Source of the DNA: ANME-2 cluster archaeon
GTDB taxonomy: Archaea > Halobacteriota > Methanosarcinia > Methanosarcinales > Methanocomedenaceae
Reading direction: 5' to 3'
Assembly: GCA_014237145.1 (NCBI GenBank)
Contig: JAAXOC010000052.1
Location: 1-64,000, forward strand
DNA: 64,000 nucleotides
The first letter of the stretch is position 1, and each line of letters starts with the position of its first letter. Position numbers and translations under genes: made by a program. Shown here piece by piece: positions 27,422-38,548 of the stretch. The notes beneath the pieces are model-generated. The model made no database searches, had not been told where the DNA came from, and saw only the letters and a list, made by a program, of their open reading frames with translations.

Positions 27422-27704
27422 ACTATTAGGTAGAGTATATCGATTATGCTGAAAACTCTTCTTATAGTCCCATAATTTGATCATTTTTAGATAACCAAAT
27501 TTATTATTTGTCCTTAATAAAACTTATAGTAAACTAATAAGAGGTTACAATAATATAGCAAAGACATTAAAGTCTAAAAACAGGTCCATTCAGGATCACA
27601 ATCCCAGCATTAAAGGAACTAAAAAAATTAGCATTAGCTCATATAATAATATTTATATATATTGATATTTATATATGTTGTGCAATTGTGCAGGCATGGT
27701 GAAT

Positions 27705-28154
27705 ATGATGAGTAAAGCTAATAGGCCTTTAATTCAAAACGAACATGGTATGGAACTACCTATCAATATCGTGGTTATGTTGGTAGTAGGAATGGTTGCC
27801 CTGGCCGCCCTCCTGGCTATTATTCCTGAGTCAAAAAAAAATCTGATAGTAGAAGTGGTATCGGTCAATGCTATGGATGGTATCACCGGTGATATCGACA
27901 ATGGTAAAAGCACTAATGTGACAGTTGTTGTAAAAGTGTATGACAGTGACAATAACCTGATAAATGGGGCTAGTGTAATAATATCAGGCGGAGGCGGTTT
28001 TGGTTCTGACAAGACAGATGCAACAGGACAGGCTACTGTTACTGTATCTAATGTTTTCATACGTCTGAACCAGGACTCCATAGACCTTAAACTGGTAGCA
28101 AAAGCCAATGGTTTTTATGATTACACAGATGAATCTGCAATATTGATCACTTAG
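27705..28154 (+). CDS. Pilin-like protein with Ig-like domain, first of three
   Basis: About 149 residues from one of two adjacent ATGs near 27705 ('ggtga' just upstream); a longer frame begins at 27675. A short charged leader 'PLIQNEHGMELP' precedes a single hydrophobic helix ('INIVVMLVVGMVALAALLAI'), as in type IV pilin-like or prepilin-type proteins. The exposed domain has carboxypeptidase-regulatory/Ig-like character ('LINGASVIISGGGGFG...TDATGQATVTV'). Followed 2 bases later by a related gene. Likely exported and membrane or pilus associated. Confidence 0.65.
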   Translation: MMSKANRPLIQNEHGMELPINIVVMLVVGMVALAALLAIIPESKKNLIVEVVSVNAMDGITGDIDNGKSTNVTVVVKVYDSDNNLINGASVIISGGGGFGSDKTDATGQATVTVSNVFIRLNQDSIDLKLVAKANGFYDYTDESAILIT

Positions 28155-28156
28155 GT

Positions 28157-28591
28157 ATGTTCAGCGACGAGACAGCTACCGTGGGTCTGCCCATGAGGAT
28201 GGTAGTGCTTACTATCGTCGGAATGGCCGGGCTTGCTGCCATGATAATTTTCATTGGTGACATGAGCCTGGTGCCAAAGACCATGCATGCCGATATCACC
28301 GGTATTGATAACATCACAACAAGTAGTGTGTTACATGTCAACAACGGTACTAAGAACGTCACTATCCGTGTAATTGATGTAGATGGCGGGCCTGTGGTGG
28401 GCGCAACTGTCGTTTTCTATGGTTTACATACTTCTGCTTCAGGTATTACTGATAGTAACGGAAATGCCCTGGTCAATATTGATACATCTTCTTTCAGTGT
28501 TTCAGGTGAAGGATACCTGAAACTGTCAGCTAAAGCTAGTGGTTTTGTTGATTACAAGAACGATTTTGCACTAAAAGTGGTAGATAGTTAA
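28157..28591 (+). CDS. Pilin-like protein with Ig-like domain, second of three
   Basis: A 144-residue paralogue in layout of the preceding gene: leader 'MFSDETATVGLP', hydrophobic helix 'MRMVVLTIVGMAGLAAMIIF', then an Ig-like domain ('VDGGPVVGATVVFYG...GITDSNGNALVNI'). Start ATG lies 2 bases after the preceding stop, implying coupled translation. The three proteins share G-x(2-5)-P-[ILM]-x-[ILM]-V-V at the helix start, a possible processing signature. Function in a pilus-like assembly is inferred from layout. Confidence 0.65.
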   Translation: MFSDETATVGLPMRMVVLTIVGMAGLAAMIIFIGDMSLVPKTMHADITGIDNITTSSVLHVNNGTKNVTIRVIDVDGGPVVGATVVFYGLHTSASGITDSNGNALVNIDTSSFSVSGEGYLKLSAKASGFVDYKNDFALKVVDS

Positions 28592-29334: not shown

Positions 29335-30633
29335 ATGCTTTGTCCTCTTCTTTCGAACTCTGGTGTTAATTTGTGGAAAGATGAAAATGGTATTGATACT
29401 ATTCCACTAAAACTGGTAGTCTACCTGGCCCTGGTTGGAATTATCATTGCACTTGCGGCAATTGGCCTGAAGAATGCAGGACCGCCAATGGATGGCGCTT
29501 TAATGGAGCGTCAGCTGGGGGAGGTTAAATCCGGTATTGAACTTATGCAGTCAGGATATGCCAGGGACCTGTCAGACCCGTACACTGCCACCGGCAATAC
29601 CAGGAGCTTTGACCTAGTGCTGCCTGAGCGCCTGGAATACCTGTCATTCGGGGCAGACCCTGACCCTGACAACAATGGCATTCTGACCGATACACCGCCG
29701 GGTCTGGTGACAGATAACGGTGACGTGATCTACTATAAGTTGAGGGGCGACGGCAAGAGGTTGGTTAAACTCAAGGATTCTATCCACATTCGCGAAGGCG
29801 AACTGGTAGACGGCCGCTGGTCTCCCAGTGTAGTGGACGGACTGGGGCAGGCGTTTGTGCTCACAGGCGGCAGCCAGTCTGTGACTTTTGAACTGGTCTA
29901 TGACAGGGGCACTACATACACACTTTCACACCTGAGTGATAATCTTGATGTATACATAAATCCTGATAATGATGGCGGGCTGCCCCATGGCTTGTTTGTA
30001 TCGGTAAATCCGGATTCTTTCCCTGCTGATGATGTTACTGAAGGCAGTGTCACGGTACAGTTGGTCGACAGCCAGGGTCGGTGGGTACAGGAAATGGGAA
30101 GGACTGTAAACCTGACCAGCAGCAGGGGCAACCTCAGTGCCGCGCAGGTGGTTACTAATGCACACGGCAGCGGCAGCGTGATGCTGACTTCAGGAGAACT
30201 GGGTCTGGGTGTGGTCACAGCACAGTCCCCTGGACTCCATAACGGAACAAGCGAAGTTGCATTCACACCGCCGCCTCTGGTAATAGAATTTAATGAATGG
30301 ATAAATTCATCAAAAAAAACTGATCCTGACTCGGAACTGGCAGCCCGGTTTTGGATTGAACACAACACTTCTTATAGTGTAACCCTGACCGGATGGGCCA
30401 CGGAAGCCCACTGGCTCACAAGGCCAGAGGAATGGGCAATCGGCAAGATCGAGATCGATGGTGTGGTTCTGGATGAAATAGAAGTGGCCGGTGGGTCAAG
30501 AATAGATGTGCCTTTCGGGGATGTACTGCTTAGTGAAGGTAAACATACCCTAAGGGTTACTATGACAAATGATTTAAATATCCTCTGGGGAGAGGACAGG
30601 AACCTGTATGTGGAACAGGTGGAGTTTTCTTGA
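29335..30633 (+). CDS. Large pilin-like surface protein, third of three
   Basis: Up to 432 residues from ATG 29335; a TTG at 29371 ('LWKDENGIDT') is an equally good start and matches the leader of the other two. After 'DENGIDTIPLK' comes a single helix 'LVVYLALVGIIIALAAIGL', then about 380 exposed residues with an Ig/invasin-like region ('PDSFPADDVTEGSVTVQLVD', 'GNLSAAQVVTNAHGSGSVML') and a C-terminal jelly-roll-like segment. Such archaeal proteins often neighbour TadA/TadC-type pilus machinery; a TadC-like gene is 6 kb downstream. Role is inference. Confidence 0.65.
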   Translation: MLCPLLSNSGVNLWKDENGIDTIPLKLVVYLALVGIIIALAAIGLKNAGPPMDGALMERQLGEVKSGIELMQSGYARDLSDPYTATGNTRSFDLVLPERLEYLSFGADPDPDNNGILTDTPPGLVTDNGDVIYYKLRGDGKRLVKLKDSIHIREGELVDGRWSPSVVDGLGQAFVLTGGSQSVTFELVYDRGTTYTLSHLSDNLDVYINPDNDGGLPHGLFVSVNPDSFPADDVTEGSVTVQLVDSQGRWVQEMGRTVNLTSSRGNLSAAQVVTNAHGSGSVMLTSGELGLGVVTAQSPGLHNGTSEVAFTPPPLVIEFNEWINSSKKTDPDSELAARFWIEHNTSYSVTLTGWATEAHWLTRPEEWAIGKIEIDGVVLDEIEVAGGSRIDVPFGDVLLSEGKHTLRVTMTNDLNILWGEDRNLYVEQVEFS

Positions 30634-30747: not shown

Positions 30748-30963
30748 ATGACAACCAAAACAATCACTATCCGGGAAGATGTTTACAGGATGCTCCTGTC
30801 CATTAAGGGAACCAGGGAGAGTTTTAGTAATTTTTTTGAGAGGATGGTAATATCCAGGCGGAATCTGGATAAATTAAAAGAACTTCGTGGTTTTGTTGAG
30901 GTCAAAGACAAAGATGCCCTGTTGAAAGAGCTGTCTGAAAAAAGAGAGGAGATACGATATTGA
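30748..30963 (+). CDS. vapB: VapB-type antitoxin (DUF217 family)
   Basis: A 71-residue protein beginning 'MTTKTITIREDVYRMLLSIK', a ribbon-helix-helix/AbrB-like N-terminus typical of archaeal DUF217 antitoxins, and an acidic C-terminal tail that would wrap the toxin. Its stop overlaps the toxin start (TTG at 30960) by four bases. Binds and silences the PIN toxin and represses its own operon in known pairs. Confidence 0.87.
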   Translation: MTTKTITIREDVYRMLLSIKGTRESFSNFFERMVISRRNLDKLKELRGFVEVKDKDALLKELSEKREEIRY

Positions 30964-31337
30964 TCCTTGTGGATACCGATGTCCTTATCGAGATATTTGA
31001 CAGGAATTCGGAAAAAGGTGATAAGGCACTGAAGAAGATAGAGAAGACTGGAGAAGATATCACCACTACCTCTTTGAATCTGCATGAGATCCTGTACGGT
31101 CTGTATAAATATACCGACCGTGCAAAACTCGAAAGGATACTGGTGCTTGATGTTGTTGAGTTCACAAAGGATGATGCAGTTCTTTCCTCAAAACTCGAAG
31201 TCGAAACAGAGAAGAAGGGGAAAAAGGTTCCCAGGTTTGATACCATGATTGCGGCGGTTGCCATTAATAGGGGATTTAAGTTGTTTACTTTTAACAGGAA
31301 GCACTTTGAGGGATTTGGGGATTTGACGCTGGTTTGA
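30960..31337 (+). CDS. vapC: VapC-type PIN-domain ribonuclease toxin
   Basis: A 125-residue PIN domain. Acidic metal ligands are visible: Asp in 'ILVDTDVLIEIFD', Glu in 'TSLNLHEILYGLY', Asp in 'PRFDTMIAAVAI', and a following polar site 'LFTFNRKHFEGF'. VapC toxins cut tRNA or rRNA when released from VapB. TTG start overlaps the antitoxin stop, as usual for the operon. Intact as read. Confidence 0.9.
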   Translation: MILVDTDVLIEIFDRNSEKGDKALKKIEKTGEDITTTSLNLHEILYGLYKYTDRAKLERILVLDVVEFTKDDAVLSSKLEVETEKKGKKVPRFDTMIAAVAINRGFKLFTFNRKHFEGFGDLTLV

Positions 31338-31545: not shown

Positions 31546-34500
31546 ATGAACTCAAACAAGCTCGCCCCAATAATAATATCCCTGTTAGCCATCTCCCTCA
31601 TACTGCTGCTGGTCTTCCCCACCATCACCCAACCCATTTCAAACCTCATCAACCAGCCCGCCCATCCATACGACCCAACAGCCACCTACACAGGCAGCGA
31701 CCTGCTCATCCTGGCCCCTCGCGTAATGTTCACAGGCGGCGAATCAGCCGTCACCATAGCAGCCACAGACAAAGGCGCACCTGTAGAGCAGAGTATCAGC
31801 TTCATGCTCGTGGACGCTGCCGGAGTGGCGACCACACTCACAAAGGGCTCAACCGGTCCCACAGGTCATGCTGTGGCAACCTTTGACGTGCCAGAACTTG
31901 AGCAGGGTACCTACACTCTGGTGGCACAGCCCGCAGGTTCCAATGCCACCTTCAACGGCAGTGTCAGGATCGCAAACAGCAGCGCCCTGTTCCTTGAGAC
32001 TGACAAGCCCATCTACAAACCCGGCCAGACCATCCACGGGCGCATCCTGTCCCTGAACAACAACCTAATACCAGTATCATGCCAGTGCATAATTGAAATA
32101 TCGGATGCCAAAGGCATCAAGATATTCAAGGAGACCCTGGACACCAACGAATACGGCGTAGCATCCTTTGACATGCCCCTTGCAAGCGAAGTGAACCTCG
32201 GTACCTGGAAGGTCAAAGCCGAAATGGGCCAGGCCAAGACCCAGCTTGACCTGAGGGTCGAGAAATACGTACTTCCCAAGTTCCAGGTCGATGTGACCAC
32301 ACCCAGGAACTGGTTCCTGGTGGATGACCCCATCACCGGCACAGTAGATGCAAACTACTTCTTTGGCAAGCAAGTGGAAGGCAGGGTCAGTGTAGTTGCC
32401 TCCAGATACGTTGGAGTGTGGGAGGAATATGCCACATATGAAGTGGACCTGGAAGACGGGTCCGCAGAATTCGAACTGCCGGAAGCCGGATGGGTAGCCG
32501 GCACCTACGGTGCCGGGGGAATGGGCAGCCTGACCCTGAACATCTCGGTGACAGATACCGGGAACCACACCGAAACCACTACCAAACTGTTAAAGATCAC
32601 AGAATCACCTGTAGTACTCCAGATCATACCCGAATCCAGGCTGGTCAAGCCAGGCATGCCCTTTAATATATTGATTGTTACCGAAACCCCTGACGGAGAA
32701 CCCCTGGAACAGGAAGTAGAGATAGAGCTTGAATTTGTAGATACGAACTACAATTACCAGACCCAGTCCTCCACCGTGACCACCAGTAACGGTGTAGCAC
32801 TTGCCGAATTCCAGGCACCTGAAGATGTCCGGAGCGCAAATATCCAAGCCAGTTCCGGCGATGCATCCCAGAGCATGAACCTTGGTGCCGTTTATTCGCC
32901 AAGCGGCAGTTTCCTGCACCTGGTACAGGATGGCGGCGGCACCCCTAAAGTTGGAGATACCATCAGTTTCATTGTTTACAGTACCAACCCGGGTACTGTC
33001 TATTATGATATCGTAGCTGGCGGCAGGACAGTATTCTCTGCCACAAGCAGTGAGCGCAACATCAGCCTTACAGTCACACCCCAGATGAGCCCAAAAGCAA
33101 AAGTTGTGGCATACATCATCAATCCCAACAGCGAAGTATCGGCAGACACCCTGCCATTTGACGTGATAATGGAAGCACCTGTTGACCTGCAGGTTTCGTT
33201 CGACCAGGATGAAGTTGAACCCAGCGGCGATGTGAGTGTGAATTTCGATGCAGGCTCCAGGTCAATGATAGGATATTCCATAGTGGACGAATCAGTGTTC
33301 GCCCTAAGCGAGGGCAGGTTGAACCTCCAGCAAGTATTTAACGAACTGGAGCAGCGGTTCATGGAACCCCAGGCCGAAGCACATCCCCAGTACTGGACCC
33401 CGGTTCCAATGGGTGCACAGGATATTATCGAAGATGCTGGCCTGCAGGTGCTTAAATCCCCTAACCTTGAGGTACCTGAACAGGTACACGAACCGGAAGT
33501 AGAAGGTGGGATGGGAAAAGGTGGTTTCTTTGGAGATGTGATGATGGTGGAAGAGGCCATGGACGCCGCTGCTCCCATGGAGGGACCAGTAGAATCTGCT
33601 ACCGGGGTGCCACAGGCCGAATCCGATAGCGGTCTGGCCGAAGTGGAGCGGGTCAGGCAATTCTTCCCAGAGACCTGGGTATGGGAGCCTGAACTGATCA
33701 CCGATGACAGCGGCATGGCAGAAGTTGACCTGAGCGCCCCTGATTCCATTACAACATGGAGACTCCATGCAGTTTCCTCATCCCCTGATGGTTTTGGCAT
33801 TGCAGAGACCGGCCTGAAGGTGTTCCAGGACTTCTTTGTAGACCCTGACCTGCCCTATGCAGTGACAAGGGGAGAGGAGTTCCCTGTCACTGTACAGGTG
33901 TATAATTACCTGGATAAGGAACAACAGGTGACTGTTACACTGTCCGGCACCAACTGGTTTGATATTATCGGCAGCAGTAACAGCCAGATAAGCGTCCCTG
34001 CCAACAGTGTGCAGCCTGTCAGCTTCACCATCAGGCCCACACAGGTAGGTACACAACTGGTAGAGATCACAGGCCAGACCACGTCCCGCGCTGATGCTGT
34101 AAAGAAAGAGATCATCGTTGAGCCTGAGGGGACCCAACGTGAGATAGTGATAAACGGCATCCTTCAGGACCAGGATGTGATACTGGATGCGGTCCTGCCA
34201 CATGGTATTGTCGCCGATTCGGGGAAAATACTGCTTAGCTTCACCCCATCCCTGGTGGCGCAATCCATCAGCGGCGTGGACGACCTGCTGGGTATGCCTT
34301 ACGGCTGCGGTGAGCAGAACATGATGTTCTTCGCCCCGGACGTGGAGATACTGCGATACCTGAAAACATCCGGCCAGACCAATCCCGAGATACAGGCCAA
34401 AGCCGAGATGTTTATCATTACCGGGTACCAGCGTCAACTGACCTACCAGCACAGGGACGGTTCGTTCTCGGCATTCGGGGACAGCGACCCTATAGGCAGC

Positions 34501-35736
34501 CTATGGCTTACCGCTTTTGTGCTCCAGTCCTTCAGTAGTGCCAGGGATGTGACCACCATAGATGATTCGGTACTGGACGGGGCTGCTGACTGGATCATGT
34601 CTAACCAGAACCAGGATGGTTCCTGGGACCAGATAGGGTTCGTGCACCACCAGGAGATCTTAGGTGGAATGAGCGGCAAGTACTCGCTAAGTGCTTACAC
34701 GGCACTATCACTGCTGGAATACGGCAGAGCTAGTGGCCCGCTTGACAATGCACAGGAATACCTGGAGGATAACCTTGACGACCAGCAGGACGACCCCTAT
34801 GCACTGGCACTGGCTGCACTGGTACTGGAACGCATGGGCAGCGACCGGGCAGATGATGCGCTTGACATGCTTATGGATCTGGCACAGCAGGATGAGAACG
34901 GCATGTACTGGGAACTGGAACCAAGTGTGGAACCCAGGGGAATGTACTGGCAGCCTCCTTCCAGCAAGAATGTTGAAGTGACTGCATACGGCGCACTTGT
35001 ACTTATCGAGCACAGGGATGCCAGGGCCAATGAAGTCCTGAAATGGCTATCTGCTCAGCGCAACAGCCTGGGCGGATATGGCAGCACCCAGGATACGGTA
35101 TTGGCATTCAAGGCACTGATGACGGCAGCCGCCACCCAGGCAAAGGACACGGATGCAACGATAACTGTCACGGCAGATGGTAAGAAGATCACACAGGTCA
35201 GCGTGGATGCCGGTAACTATGATGTGCTGCAGATTGTGGAAATCCCTGGATCCGCAGAATTAATTACACTGAGTATATCAGGCAAGGGCGACATTAATTA
35301 CCAGCTTGTCAAGCGGTTCAATGTGATACTGCCTGTTGAACCCGTATTCACTGACCTGGAATTCGAAGTGGAGTACGATGCTACGGATGTGGCAGTGAAC
35401 GACATTGTTGATGTTCATGCAAGGGTTAACTACACTGGAAGAGCCAATTCAACAGGCATGCTTATCCTGGATGTGGCAGTACCTACAGGCTTTGCTCCAG
35501 TGGTATCTACACTGAATGAATTAAAAACGGATGGTCTTATCAGCAGGTACGAGATAGCGGGCCGCAAGATCATCCTGTATGTGGATGACCTGCCAGGAGG
35601 TGAGGAACTTTTGTTCGATCTTCAGGTGCAGGCACAGTTCCCTGTAAAGGCTATAATACCTGACAGCAGTGCCTACTCCTACTATAATCCAGAGATAAAG
35701 GCAGAGTCCAGAGGCCGGGAGATCGTGGTAGTATAG
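31546..35736 (+). CDS. Alpha-2-macroglobulin / complement C3-like thioester protein
   Basis: A 1396-residue surface protein with an N-terminal membrane helix (about residues 9-28), then macroglobulin domains. MG2 carries 'ETDKPIYKPGQTIHGRI'. An acidic, Pro/Gly/Met-rich insert (about 600-700) sits in the position of a bait or linker region. The next domain has 'PDSITTWRLHAVSSSPDGF', strikingly like animal complement and TEP proteins. The thioester motif 'PYGCGEQNMM' places Cys921 and Gln924 for an intramolecular thioester. The TED helices include 'GGYGSTQDTVLAFKAL', and the end (about 1265-1396) looks like the receptor-binding MG8 domain ('SAYSYYNPEI'). The protein could trap proteases or tag intruding surfaces. 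No PbpC, the usual bacterial partner, is adjacent. Confidence 0.93.
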   Translation: MNSNKLAPIIISLLAISLILLLVFPTITQPISNLINQPAHPYDPTATYTGSDLLILAPRVMFTGGESAVTIAATDKGAPVEQSISFMLVDAAGVATTLTKGSTGPTGHAVATFDVPELEQGTYTLVAQPAGSNATFNGSVRIANSSALFLETDKPIYKPGQTIHGRILSLNNNLIPVSCQCIIEISDAKGIKIFKETLDTNEYGVASFDMPLASEVNLGTWKVKAEMGQAKTQLDLRVEKYVLPKFQVDVTTPRNWFLVDDPITGTVDANYFFGKQVEGRVSVVASRYVGVWEEYATYEVDLEDGSAEFELPEAGWVAGTYGAGGMGSLTLNISVTDTGNHTETTTKLLKITESPVVLQIIPESRLVKPGMPFNILIVTETPDGEPLEQEVEIELEFVDTNYNYQTQSSTVTTSNGVALAEFQAPEDVRSANIQASSGDASQSMNLGAVYSPSGSFLHLVQDGGGTPKVGDTISFIVYSTNPGTVYYDIVAGGRTVFSATSSERNISLTVTPQMSPKAKVVAYIINPNSEVSADTLPFDVIMEAPVDLQVSFDQDEVEPSGDVSVNFDAGSRSMIGYSIVDESVFALSEGRLNLQQVFNELEQRFMEPQAEAHPQYWTPVPMGAQDIIEDAGLQVLKSPNLEVPEQVHEPEVEGGMGKGGFFGDVMMVEEAMDAAAPMEGPVESATGVPQAESDSGLAEVERVRQFFPETWVWEPELITDDSGMAEVDLSAPDSITTWRLHAVSSSPDGFGIAETGLKVFQDFFVDPDLPYAVTRGEEFPVTVQVYNYLDKEQQVTVTLSGTNWFDIIGSSNSQISVPANSVQPVSFTIRPTQVGTQLVEITGQTTSRADAVKKEIIVEPEGTQREIVINGILQDQDVILDAVLPHGIVADSGKILLSFTPSLVAQSISGVDDLLGMPYGCGEQNMMFFAPDVEILRYLKTSGQTNPEIQAKAEMFIITGYQRQLTYQHRDGSFSAFGDSDPIGSLWLTAFVLQSFSSARDVTTIDDSVLDGAADWIMSNQNQDGSWDQIGFVHHQEILGGMSGKYSLSAYTALSLLEYGRASGPLDNAQEYLEDNLDDQQDDPYALALAALVLERMGSDRADDALDMLMDLAQQDENGMYWELEPSVEPRGMYWQPPSSKNVEVTAYGALVLIEHRDARANEVLKWLSAQRNSLGGYGSTQDTVLAFKALMTAAATQAKDTDATITVTADGKKITQVSVDAGNYDVLQIVEIPGSAELITLSISGKGDINYQLVKRFNVILPVEPVFTDLEFEVEYDATDVAVNDIVDVHARVNYTGRANSTGMLILDVAVPTGFAPVVSTLNELKTDGLISRYEIAGRKIILYVDDLPGGEELLFDLQVQAQFPVKAIIPDSSAYSYYNPEIKAESRGREIVVV

Positions 35737-36610: not shown

Positions 36611-38548
36611 TCACACAATTGAAGCGAAAAGTACCCTGCTCACAACCATGGAAATTGTAAAGACCAAAATCGACAAAGGCAACCCCTTTCCAAGTTCATA
36701 CATGAATTGTGCTTTATCCCCGCCGTATTCGATACCTCCTGCAAACCTGATCAGGATAACAACCAGTATGATAATATAAAATCCTACTGCCAGCATGAAC
36801 ACATCAGGTGGGATGCTCTGTTCCATCCCACCTCCCACATCTGACATGATAGATGAAATACTGATATCATCAGGCAGCCTGCTAAACTCGTGTGAAATAT
36901 CTTGCAGTATCTTCTGGATAACCTCTGAAAGGGCCAGGGTTACACCTGCGATCAGGGGGGCAAATATTATAGCCGTTGTTTTCATTGTGGAGGTCACATC
37001 ATACAGTGAGCTTTTAATGTTATCCTCAACCTCTTGCAGCTCTTTCAAGTGGTCTGCCAGTTTTACAATGGCAACACCTGCTGCCTCATGGCTTTTATAT
37101 ACACTCTCGGTAAACAGCCGCATAGTGGTTTGCACCCGCTCTGAATAGATATTCTTAAACGCACCGTACTCCTGGTCAAAGATTGCACCTGCCAGCGTTG
37201 TCCTGAGAAAAGAGATGTTATGCGCCACGTTCTGGAATGCTTCTCCAATGCCGGTACCCTTCATGGTCTGGGCGGTTTGCATGAAGGCCCATTCCGGGGA
37301 ACGCCCCTCGCTGATCCGGCGTCCCAGCACGAACAGGGCATCTGCAAACTGGCGCTCTATCTCTTTAATCTCATCTCTGATGCTTTTATATGGTGCATAG
37401 ACCATGAATGCATATATGGATATCAGGGCTGTGACACCCCAGATCACAGGGAACGAAACAGGTACGAGTCCGGTCATCACACCTGTACTTACAATGCCAC
37501 CCGGATTGCCCAGTTGCACCCAAATATACCCGGATGCACCAATCAATACCGCTACTGTTACTGATAATATCATTGTACTCCGTCTGGTACTCCTGATGTT
37601 TACAAGGCGCGGGTGTTCATCCGGTATATTTGGCGGCGAGAAGGCAGCAGGACGCTGAAGCAATATATACTCGGCATATGCAAAAGTGGCCAGCGGCAGG
37701 ATCAGGTCATAGAGCAGTATAAGGGTAATAGCATTGATACGCACTCCCACAATGCTCACAGCAGGAAGTAGCGCCACCAGTGCCAGCGGGATCAGAATAA
37801 AGATGCTGTACAATACATAGGTGGGTGTCTTAAGCCTGGCCGCAAACCCTTCCATCATATGCCTGGTACCCTCCAGCACAATATCCAGGCTCTTGTTCAA
37901 TGTCATAACTCGCTGTGCTTCATCAGGCTCATTTGTACTGCTCTTAACCAGATACAGTGCACGCTTGAAGTACTCACTGTTCTTACCCCACTGATTGGCA
38001 AAGGCTATGAGGGCATCATCGATGTCTGTGTATACTCTCACATGCATATCCCATATCAGTTTACGCAGGTCCCGGGCCAGGGGCCTATCTGAATTGGCAG
38101 CTGCAAAGGAGATGGCCCGCTCCATGTTCGATACCAGTTTCATGCTCATGACAACGTAAGATAGTATCTCAGGGATATCTCCCAAGGAGTGTATTTTTTC
38201 GAACCTGGCATGGATCTTTGGATATTCGCTGAGATAAAGCAGCAGGGCTAAAGGTATGAGCACAGTGGTCAATACCATGAAGATTATGGTCGTGGAGTCG
38301 AATACCATGAACTTGAAAAATACAAGGTCCACGACAGTGAGCAGTATAAATGAGATTAAAGCACCCGATATAGCCAGTATTTGGGTTTCGTAGGGTTCAA
38401 CATCAAATCCGCAAAAATTCAGGCTATCCATGAATTCCTGACTGACAGAGGCTTCGCTTTTCTTTTTAAAGCGTTCAAGGTCGCCTACAAGCCAGCCACA
38501 GTAGTTGACTGAGTGCTTACATGCAGTTGAGTACCAGTTGCCAGGCAT
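36611..38548 (-). CDS. Type II/IV secretion system F-type membrane protein (TadC/FlaJ-like)
   Basis: A 645-residue membrane platform protein with two T2SSF halves. Membrane helices cluster near residues 55-110, 255-300, 330-400 and 540-640. The cytoplasmic segment 'EIERQFADALFVLGRRISEG' (near 400) and 'SVYKSHEAAGVAIVKLADHLKELQEVE' are typical of archaeal TadC. Starts at ATG with 'aggtgag' upstream. It would work with a TadA-type ATPase and prepilin-like subunits to assemble a pilus, but no ATPase is in the window. The pilin-like genes at 27.7-30.6 kb are candidate substrates. Confidence 0.87.
   Translation of the reverse strand: MPGNWYSTACKHSVNYCGWLVGDLERFKKKSEASVSQEFMDSLNFCGFDVEPYETQILAISGALISFILLTVVDLVFFKFMVFDSTTIIFMVLTTVLIPLALLLYLSEYPKIHARFEKIHSLGDIPEILSYVVMSMKLVSNMERAISFAAANSDRPLARDLRKLIWDMHVRVYTDIDDALIAFANQWGKNSEYFKRALYLVKSSTNEPDEAQRVMTLNKSLDIVLEGTRHMMEGFAARLKTPTYVLYSIFILIPLALVALLPAVSIVGVRINAITLILLYDLILPLATFAYAEYILLQRPAAFSPPNIPDEHPRLVNIRSTRRSTMILSVTVAVLIGASGYIWVQLGNPGGIVSTGVMTGLVPVSFPVIWGVTALISIYAFMVYAPYKSIRDEIKEIERQFADALFVLGRRISEGRSPEWAFMQTAQTMKGTGIGEAFQNVAHNISFLRTTLAGAIFDQEYGAFKNIYSERVQTTMRLFTESVYKSHEAAGVAIVKLADHLKELQEVEDNIKSSLYDVTSTMKTTAIIFAPLIAGVTLALSEVIQKILQDISHEFSRLPDDISISSIMSDVGGGMEQSIPPDVFMLAVGFYIIILVVILIRFAGGIEYGGDKAQFMYELGKGLPLSILVFTISMVVSRVLFASIV

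What the first reader, a model, noticed from the sequence alone, without database searches (positions are those of the whole stretch)
31546..35736. Full-length complement/alpha-2-macroglobulin-like thioester protein in an archaeon
The protein has an intact thioester motif (Cys921-Gln924 in GCGEQ), an MG2 'DKPIYKPGQTI' segment, a bait-like insert, a TED with 'GGYGSTQDTV' and a C-terminal receptor-binding-like MG8 domain. It looks closer to animal TEP/C3 proteins than to the usual bacterial A2M paired with PbpC. A membrane-anchored archaeal thioester protein could trap proteases or covalently tag attacking cells, and its neighbours are toxin-antitoxin, pilus and protease genes.
Basis: partly seen in the sequence, partly recalled or inferred. 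Interest (0 to 1): 0.7.

Follow-up and report, generated by a model that had tools for sequence, protein, structure and literature searches.

The report
Animal-type thioester (A2M/complement-like) protein in archaea
A methane-oxidising archaeon carries a full-length membrane-anchored protein built like animal alpha-2-macroglobulin/CD109/complement C3, with the complete self-activating chemical bond motif and its catalytic histidine, which makes it a probable covalent trap for attacking enzymes and one of the closest microbial relatives of this animal immune family.

Summary
Window 31546-35736 (+) encodes an intact 1396-aa protein with animal-type Pfam MG2/MG3/MG4/BRD/A2M/TED/receptor-binding domains, thioester Cys921-Gln924, a hypervariable bait (about 641-697) and an N-terminal membrane anchor. 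AlphaFold models match native CD109, A2ML1, A2M and C3. It lies in an ANME-2/Methanosarcinales genome, and orthologues follow Methanosarcinales taxonomy. The nearest outside kin are Altiarchaeota, then Omnitrophota/Planctomycetota proteins with the same GCGEQN site. This clade groups with animal thioester proteins (bootstrap 98), away from the E. coli YfhM/PbpC type; AU tests do not exclude other placements. All 28 prokaryotic GCGEQN rows keep the C3-type catalytic His (His1035), which human A2M and YfhM lack. The toxin-antitoxin, pilin-like and Lon-like neighbours are not conserved, so they say nothing about function. Archaeal A2M homologues were reported in 2021 (PMC8416519); the animal-type placement and conserved His are the additions here. 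Best mechanism: a monomeric, CD109-like, bait-triggered covalent protease trap (inferred). A side result may be more novel: 30 Planctomycetota relatives have TGA exactly at the thioester Cys, with SECIS-like hairpins and selenocysteine machinery, suggesting an internal selenoester.

The parts
31546..35736 (+). CDS of the animal-type alpha-2-macroglobulin/thioester protein, 1396 aa (P0001)
31546..31650 (+). N-terminal hydrophobic membrane anchor (residues 1-35), without a lipobox Cys; most orthologues outside ANME-2a/b have a lipobox Cys instead
   Evidence: sequence; orthologue N-termini
31987..32250 (+). MG2 domain (residues 148-235), with DKPIYKPGQTI
   Evidence: PF01835
32263..32436 (+). 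MG3 domain (residues 240-297), animal type
   Evidence: PF17791
32644..32868 (+). MG4 domain (residues 367-441)
   Evidence: PF17789
32938..33306 (+). A2M_BRD match (MG5/MG6 core, residues 465-587)
   Evidence: PF07703
33466..33636 (+). Bait-like region (residues about 641-697): hypervariable, length-variable, predicted disordered, between conserved flanks
   Evidence: identity 0.23-0.34 and gaps 0.04-0.18 against about 0.3-0.9 and almost no gaps in the rest of the mature protein; pLDDT below 35 from model residue 611 on
33673..33942 (+). A2M domain (MG7, residues 710-799)
   Evidence: PF00207; model
34258..35121 (+). TED, alpha/alpha thioester domain (residues 905-1192)
   Evidence: PF07678; model
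34303..34320 (+). Thioester motif GCGEQN (Cys921, Gln924)
34648..34650 (+). His1035, aligned with the catalytic His of C3 (VIHQEMIGG) and with the His of CD109/A2ML1
35449..35706 (+). MG8/receptor-binding domain (residues 1302-1387)
   Evidence: PF07677; beta-sandwich with RBD helix in the model

Best explanation
It is a surface, membrane-anchored, probably monomeric thioester protein of the animal (A2M/CD109/C3) branch. Shown: domain set, intact thioester pair, catalytic-histidine column, hypervariable disordered bait, N-terminal anchor, predicted native-like fold. Inferred: Cys921 and Gln924 form an internal thioester after export. An external protease cleaves the acidic, Met/Ala/Pro-rich bait; the TED moves and exposes the thioester; His1035 speeds acyl transfer, so the protein becomes covalently joined to the protease or to the nearest surface nucleophile, with fast quenching by water. 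This would work as a single-use protease trap, like CD109/A2ML1/YfhM, protecting the S-layer and secreted machinery in dense sediment consortia. It stands alone and needs no PbpC or conserved partner gene.
For: Domains. PDB hits and TED alignment. C-half model best matches are native CD109 TMq 0.78, A2ML1 0.82, native A2M monomer 0.82, C3 0.73, TEP1 0.74; N-half best matches are C5, C3, C4 and CD109. His1035 column kept in 28 of 28 prokaryotic GCGEQN rows. Bait hypervariability. Only three cysteines (179, 181, 921), so the inter-subunit disulfides known for tetrameric A2M are unlikely. Lipobox or TM anchors. Long-term conservation across ANME-2, Methanosarcinaceae and Altiarchaeota.
Against: No experiment exists. 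The bait has few basic residues and no shared cleavage motif. The target protease is unknown. The gene is absent from several families of the order (no TED match in the f3 and f5 genomes), so it is not essential to the order. The models were made as two halves, so the whole native arrangement was not tested.
Confidence: 0.6

Rival explanations
1. Complement-like tagger: the main products are ester bonds from TED to hydroxyls on neighbouring or attacking cell surfaces, marking or gluing them, and protease capture is incidental.
For: C3-type His, which in complement is described as involved in cleaving the thioester to bind target cells (PMC7768046; the hydroxyl preference is own knowledge); GCGEQN identical to C3; N-half model ranks C5/C3/C4 first.
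Against: A2ML1 and CD109 also have this His and are not opsonins (own knowledge). No convertase, anaphylatoxin domain, receptor or other conserved partner gene was found. The protein is anchored to its own cell.
Confidence: 0.17
2. Covalent adhesin or matrix protein: the thioester anchors the archaeon to partner bacteria or to its own S-layer in consortia.
For: ANME-2 live in consortia (own knowledge); anchored, surface-exposed TED; thioester domains serve as adhesins in Gram-positive bacteria (own knowledge).
Against: A hypervariable bait is not needed for an adhesin. Orthologues occur in methanogens that do not live in such consortia (the record of L022 is Methanococcoides vulcani; lifestyle is own knowledge).
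Confidence: 0.1
3. Recent transfer from an animal, or contamination of the bin.
For: Similarity to human CD109 almost as high as between human paralogues (311-337 against 369-375 bits).
Against: Archaeal neighbours on the contig; the same gene in dozens of genomes including single-contig chromosomes; tree follows archaeal families; archaeal and bacterial members are 43-86% identical to it, animals 30-34%.
Confidence: 0.02

Closest known systems
CD109 / A2ML1 / alpha-2-macroglobulin (animal thioester protease inhibitors)
   Same: MG ring with bait, CUB, TED and receptor-binding MG8; GCGEQN; CD109 is also membrane-anchored (own knowledge); the catalytic His is shared with CD109 and A2ML1.
   Different: 30-34% identity; no disulfide framework; N-terminal TM or lipid anchor instead of GPI; the bait sequence is unrelated.
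Complement C3/C4 and insect TEP1
   Same: TED with GCGEQN and catalytic His; N-half fold.
   Different: No anaphylatoxin or C345C domain matched in the 1396 aa; no convertase or partner genes.
Bacterial type I A2M (E. coli YfhM/ECAM, with PbpC)
   Same: Membrane-anchored; CxEQ thioester; bait; likely protease capture (PMC4498604).
   Different: YfhM has ten MG domains with bMG1/2/3/5/6/10 and CLEQ, and no His in the column; 32 bits to the window protein; pbpC is next to yfhM in E. coli.
Archaeal A2M homologues of the 2021 Thermococcales VARTIG paper (PMC8416519)
   Same: Archaeal CxEQ thioester proteins; their Methanolobus psychrophilus example is probably an orthologue (inference; its sequence was not compared).
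   Different: That paper calls it closely related to bacterial A2M and most likely acquired by transfer; it does not discuss the animal-type subfamily or the catalytic His in the section read.
Omnitrophota and Planctomycetota GCGEQN proteins
   Same: Same architecture, motif and His; 43-57% identical.
   Different: Omnitrophota members have a long N-terminal extension (1717-1780 aa open frames).

Membership tests
Animal-type A2M/TEP (thioester) superfamily | Intact CxEQ thioester motif inside a TED | tested here: met
   GCGEQN 920-925; PF07678 254 bits
Animal-type A2M/TEP (thioester) superfamily | MG ring, bait, MG7, CUB-TED and receptor-binding MG8, of animal-type Pfam families | tested here: met
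   no bMG families matched
Animal-type A2M/TEP (thioester) superfamily | Phylogenetic placement with animal members | tested here: inconclusive
   98/95 support with prokaryotic GCGEQN, but AU tests do not reject animals with GxFEQT (p 0.30) or with the YfhM type (p 0.32)
Animal-type A2M/TEP (thioester) superfamily | Thioester forms and is methylamine-sensitive | not testable with these tools
   needs purified protein
Complement C3/C4 | Catalytic His in the TED | tested here: met
   His1035
Complement C3/C4 | Anaphylatoxin and C345C domains, convertase partners | tested here: not met
   no such Pfam match; no conserved neighbour
Bacterial type I A2M with PbpC (YfhM) | bMG domains, ten-MG layout | tested here: not met
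Bacterial type I A2M with PbpC (YfhM) | pbpC partner gene | tested here: not met
   no such neighbour in the window or recurring beside orthologues; archaea lack murein (own knowledge)
CD109-like membrane-anchored monomeric inhibitor | Membrane anchor | tested here: met
   N-terminal hydrophobic segment; lipobox in most orthologues; read from sequence, not shown by experiment
CD109-like membrane-anchored monomeric inhibitor | Protease inhibition by covalent capture | not testable with these tools
   needs assay

The most novel reading that the evidence does not exclude
The prokaryotic GCGEQN clade (Methanosarcinales, Altiarchaeota, Omnitrophota, Planctomycetota) is the microbial lineage from which, or with which, the animal A2M/CD109/complement family arose. 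Its C3-type histidine means that archaea already use covalent, ester-forming, protease-triggered tagging of foreign cells or enzymes, a complement-like defence in single cells.
Probability: 0.2. Interest if true: 0.85.

Novelty: new variant of a known kind. Interest (0 to 1): 0.62.

Why it matters
Bacterial A2Ms have been studied as remote versions of the animal proteins (the E. coli one is 12% identical to human, PMC4498604). Here is a prokaryotic branch 30-34% identical to human CD109/A2M over 700 residues, with the same domain set and the C3-type catalytic histidine, in archaea related to culturable methanogens. It makes two questions testable: whether complement-style covalent capture predates animals, and what archaea defend against with it. 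The side result, a probable selenocysteine in place of the thioester cysteine in planctomycete relatives, would be a new kind of selenoprotein in which selenium serves acyl transfer, not redox chemistry.

Tried and rejected
Gene context as a guide to function: rejected, since the window's neighbours do not recur across 20 orthologous loci, apart from generic ATPases. PbpC partnership: rejected. Contamination or recent animal transfer: rejected. Resolving whether animals nest inside the prokaryotic clade: not possible with the animal sequences on hand (three human proteins plus the C3 TED; AU tests undecided). NCBIfam gave only weak cyclase-like matches for the TED toroid. For the planctomycete TGA codons: no Rfam family matched the hairpins, and no held paper that I searched or read describes an A2M selenoprotein; PMC4807772 lists planctomycete selenoprotein candidates only in supplements that could not be opened. 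Reading TGA as a general recoding was rejected, because it occurs once per ORF, at the thioester position in every case located.

Full report
Observation. The ORF at 31546-35736 (+) is a single open frame of 1396 codons. It has seven Pfam matches of the A2M/complement superfamily, all above curated cut-offs and in canonical order: MG2, MG3, MG4, A2M_BRD, A2M, TED_complement, A2M_recep. Sequence search of the PDB gives human A2M and CD109 at E about 1e-127 to 1e-123, then A2ML1, C3, TEP1 and C4.

Genome. The window is bases 1-64000 of a 77-kb contig of a 2.97-Mb bin (99.95% complete, 1.9% contaminated). A 94%-identical orthologue lies in a Methanosarcinales MAG, and 58-96% orthologues (best segment) in ANME-2 and Methanosarcinaceae records. 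CDP-archaeol synthase is on the same contig. Of 60 relatives, 28 have a TED protein; in the phylum search 39 of 394 match, concentrated in two genera of one Methanosarcinales family and in the window's own family, including single-contig chromosomes. Three of 29 genomes in the search of the Altiarchaeota phylum carry it, at 52-60% identity.

Structure. The C-terminal half (698 residues, 31 sequences) models at pLDDT 82 as MG7, CUB, alpha/alpha TED and MG8 with the short helix typical of the receptor-binding domain. Its best PDB matches are native CD109, A2ML1, C3 and native A2M monomer (TMq 0.73-0.82), with TEP1 at 0.74; the activated C3b forms fit much worse (0.36), so the model resembles the native state. 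The N-terminal half (pLDDT 76) matches C5, C3, C4 and CD109. The bait end of that model is unstructured. Residues about 641-697 are among the least conserved and the most gapped internal part of the aligned orthologues, while the segment before them (NLQQVFNELEQRFMEPQ) and the segment after them (RVRQFFPETW) are strongly conserved.

Active site. In the TED alignment, C3's catalytic His (VIHQEMIGG), CD109's (VIHSELQGG) and A2ML1's (LLHTAMKGG) line up with His1035 (VHHQEILGG). Human A2M has Asn there; the YfhM-type rows have no aligned His. All 28 prokaryotic GCGEQN rows have His. In C4 this His is described as involved in cleaving the thioester to bind target cells (PMC7768046); its preference for hydroxyl acceptors is my own knowledge. 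The prediction is a fast, ester-capable thioester, unlike human A2M.

Placement. Three prokaryotic groups appear: GCGEQN (archaea, Omnitrophota, Planctomycetota), G[C/U]FEQT (Omnitrophota, Planctomycetota), and GCxEQT, the YfhM type. The careful tree joins animals with GCGEQN at 98/95. AU tests do not reject animals with either other group (p 0.30 and 0.32), and they allow all prokaryotic GCGEQN as one side, so the join is favoured, not proven. By BLAST from human CD109: human paralogues 369-375 bits; prokaryotic GCGEQN mostly 275-337 (range 210-337); GxFEQT 143-204; YfhM type 37-63. From the archaeal protein, animals (313-338 for the three long rows) and GxFEQT (305-384) are equally distant, and the nearest are archaeal and bacterial GCGEQN (538-1243). 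E. coli YfhM carries bMG1, bMG2, bMG3, bMG5, bMG6 and bMG10 and lacks A2M_recep; the window protein is the reverse. The archaeal subtree follows family boundaries, which points to long vertical residence in Methanosarcinales.

Neighbourhood. Upstream lie a VapB/PIN pair, Big_1/pilin-like and invasin-like proteins and a Lon-C protein; downstream lie ThiF, a glycosyltransferase, TGT and CarS. In 20 orthologous loci the window's neighbours do not recur beside the gene, apart from generic ATPases seen in a few other loci. The gene stands alone, and the toxin-antitoxin and protease context should be dropped from the argument.

Mechanism. Most likely a surface-anchored, single-use covalent protease trap. 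The fold, motif, bait, anchor and catalytic His are shown by sequence and model. Thioester formation, cleavage trigger, target and benefit are inferred. With only three cysteines it is probably monomeric, as CD109 and A2ML1 are. Complement-like tagging and adhesion remain as rivals.

Known or new. PMC8416519 already reported archaeal A2M homologues with CxEQ, including a Methanolobus protein called bacterial-like and horizontally acquired. I found no paper in the held library that places the Methanosarcinales proteins with the animal type or notes the His. Most subscription papers were not searchable.

Side result. In Planctomycetota, 30 A2M-family sites in 24 genomes have a single in-frame TGA exactly at the thioester cysteine (for example G*FEQTSS where homologues read GCFEQTSS); TAA or TAG was never seen there. 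The 54 nt after the TGA fold far more stably than in Cys homologues coding similar peptides (mean -17.5 against -7.7 kcal/mol, p 9e-8; the two sets also differ in base composition, so the codon-shuffled z-scores, mostly -1 to -5 for TGA loci and around 0 for Cys loci, are the fairer measure). Some have long stems of different sequence, such as TCCAGGGCG/CGCCCTGGA (L114), GCTCCTTCACC/GGTGAAGGAGT (L115) and TTCCGTCACG/TGTGACGGAA (L126). SelB is over its cut-off in 14 of 17 TGA genomes tested, with a further cut-short match in one. A strong tRNA-Sec (60 bits or more) is in 17 of 24 TGA genomes against 2 of 13 genomes whose A2M has Cys. All 17 genomes tested for both have SelB, partial SelB or tRNA-Sec. 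SelB is common in Planctomycetota anyway, so that part alone is weak. One of the genomes has the gene in a contig of over 8 Mb (G560:C1), so assembly error is unlikely there. This suggests a selenocysteine-based internal ester in planctomycete A2Ms; no held paper that I searched or read mentions it.

Noticed in passing
L108, L109, L111, L113-L118, L120-L122, L125-L127, L154-L167, L169 (Planctomycetota relatives; not in the window): 30 A2M-family genes have one in-frame TGA exactly at the thioester cysteine (GUFEQ), never TAA/TAG, followed by SECIS-like hairpins mostly absent from Cys homologues; SelB and/or tRNA-Sec are present in nearly all of the genomes tested. Probable selenocysteine, that is an internal selenoester instead of a thioester.
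   Followed up: yes
L066, L070-L077, L079-L082, L084-L092 (Omnitrophota): Omnitrophota genomes carry several different A2M subfamilies at once (GCGEQN, GCFEQT, GCxEQT), plus very large 2680-2724 aa open frames with weaker A2M matches.
   Followed up: partly
30748-31337 +: VapB-type antitoxin and PIN-domain toxin pair directly upstream of the A2M gene, not conserved beside orthologues.
   Followed up: partly
27675-28591 + and 29335-30633 +: Proteins with N-terminal hydrophobic segments and Big_1/invasin Ig-like domains, possibly pilin-like or surface proteins; unique to this genome among the loci compared.
   Followed up: no
36611-38548 -: 645-aa ORF without any Pfam match.
   Followed up: no
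G392 contig C4, 146743-150905: In one Methanosarcinales genome the orthologue is split into two overlapping frames: a probable frameshift, pseudogene or sequencing error.
   Followed up: no
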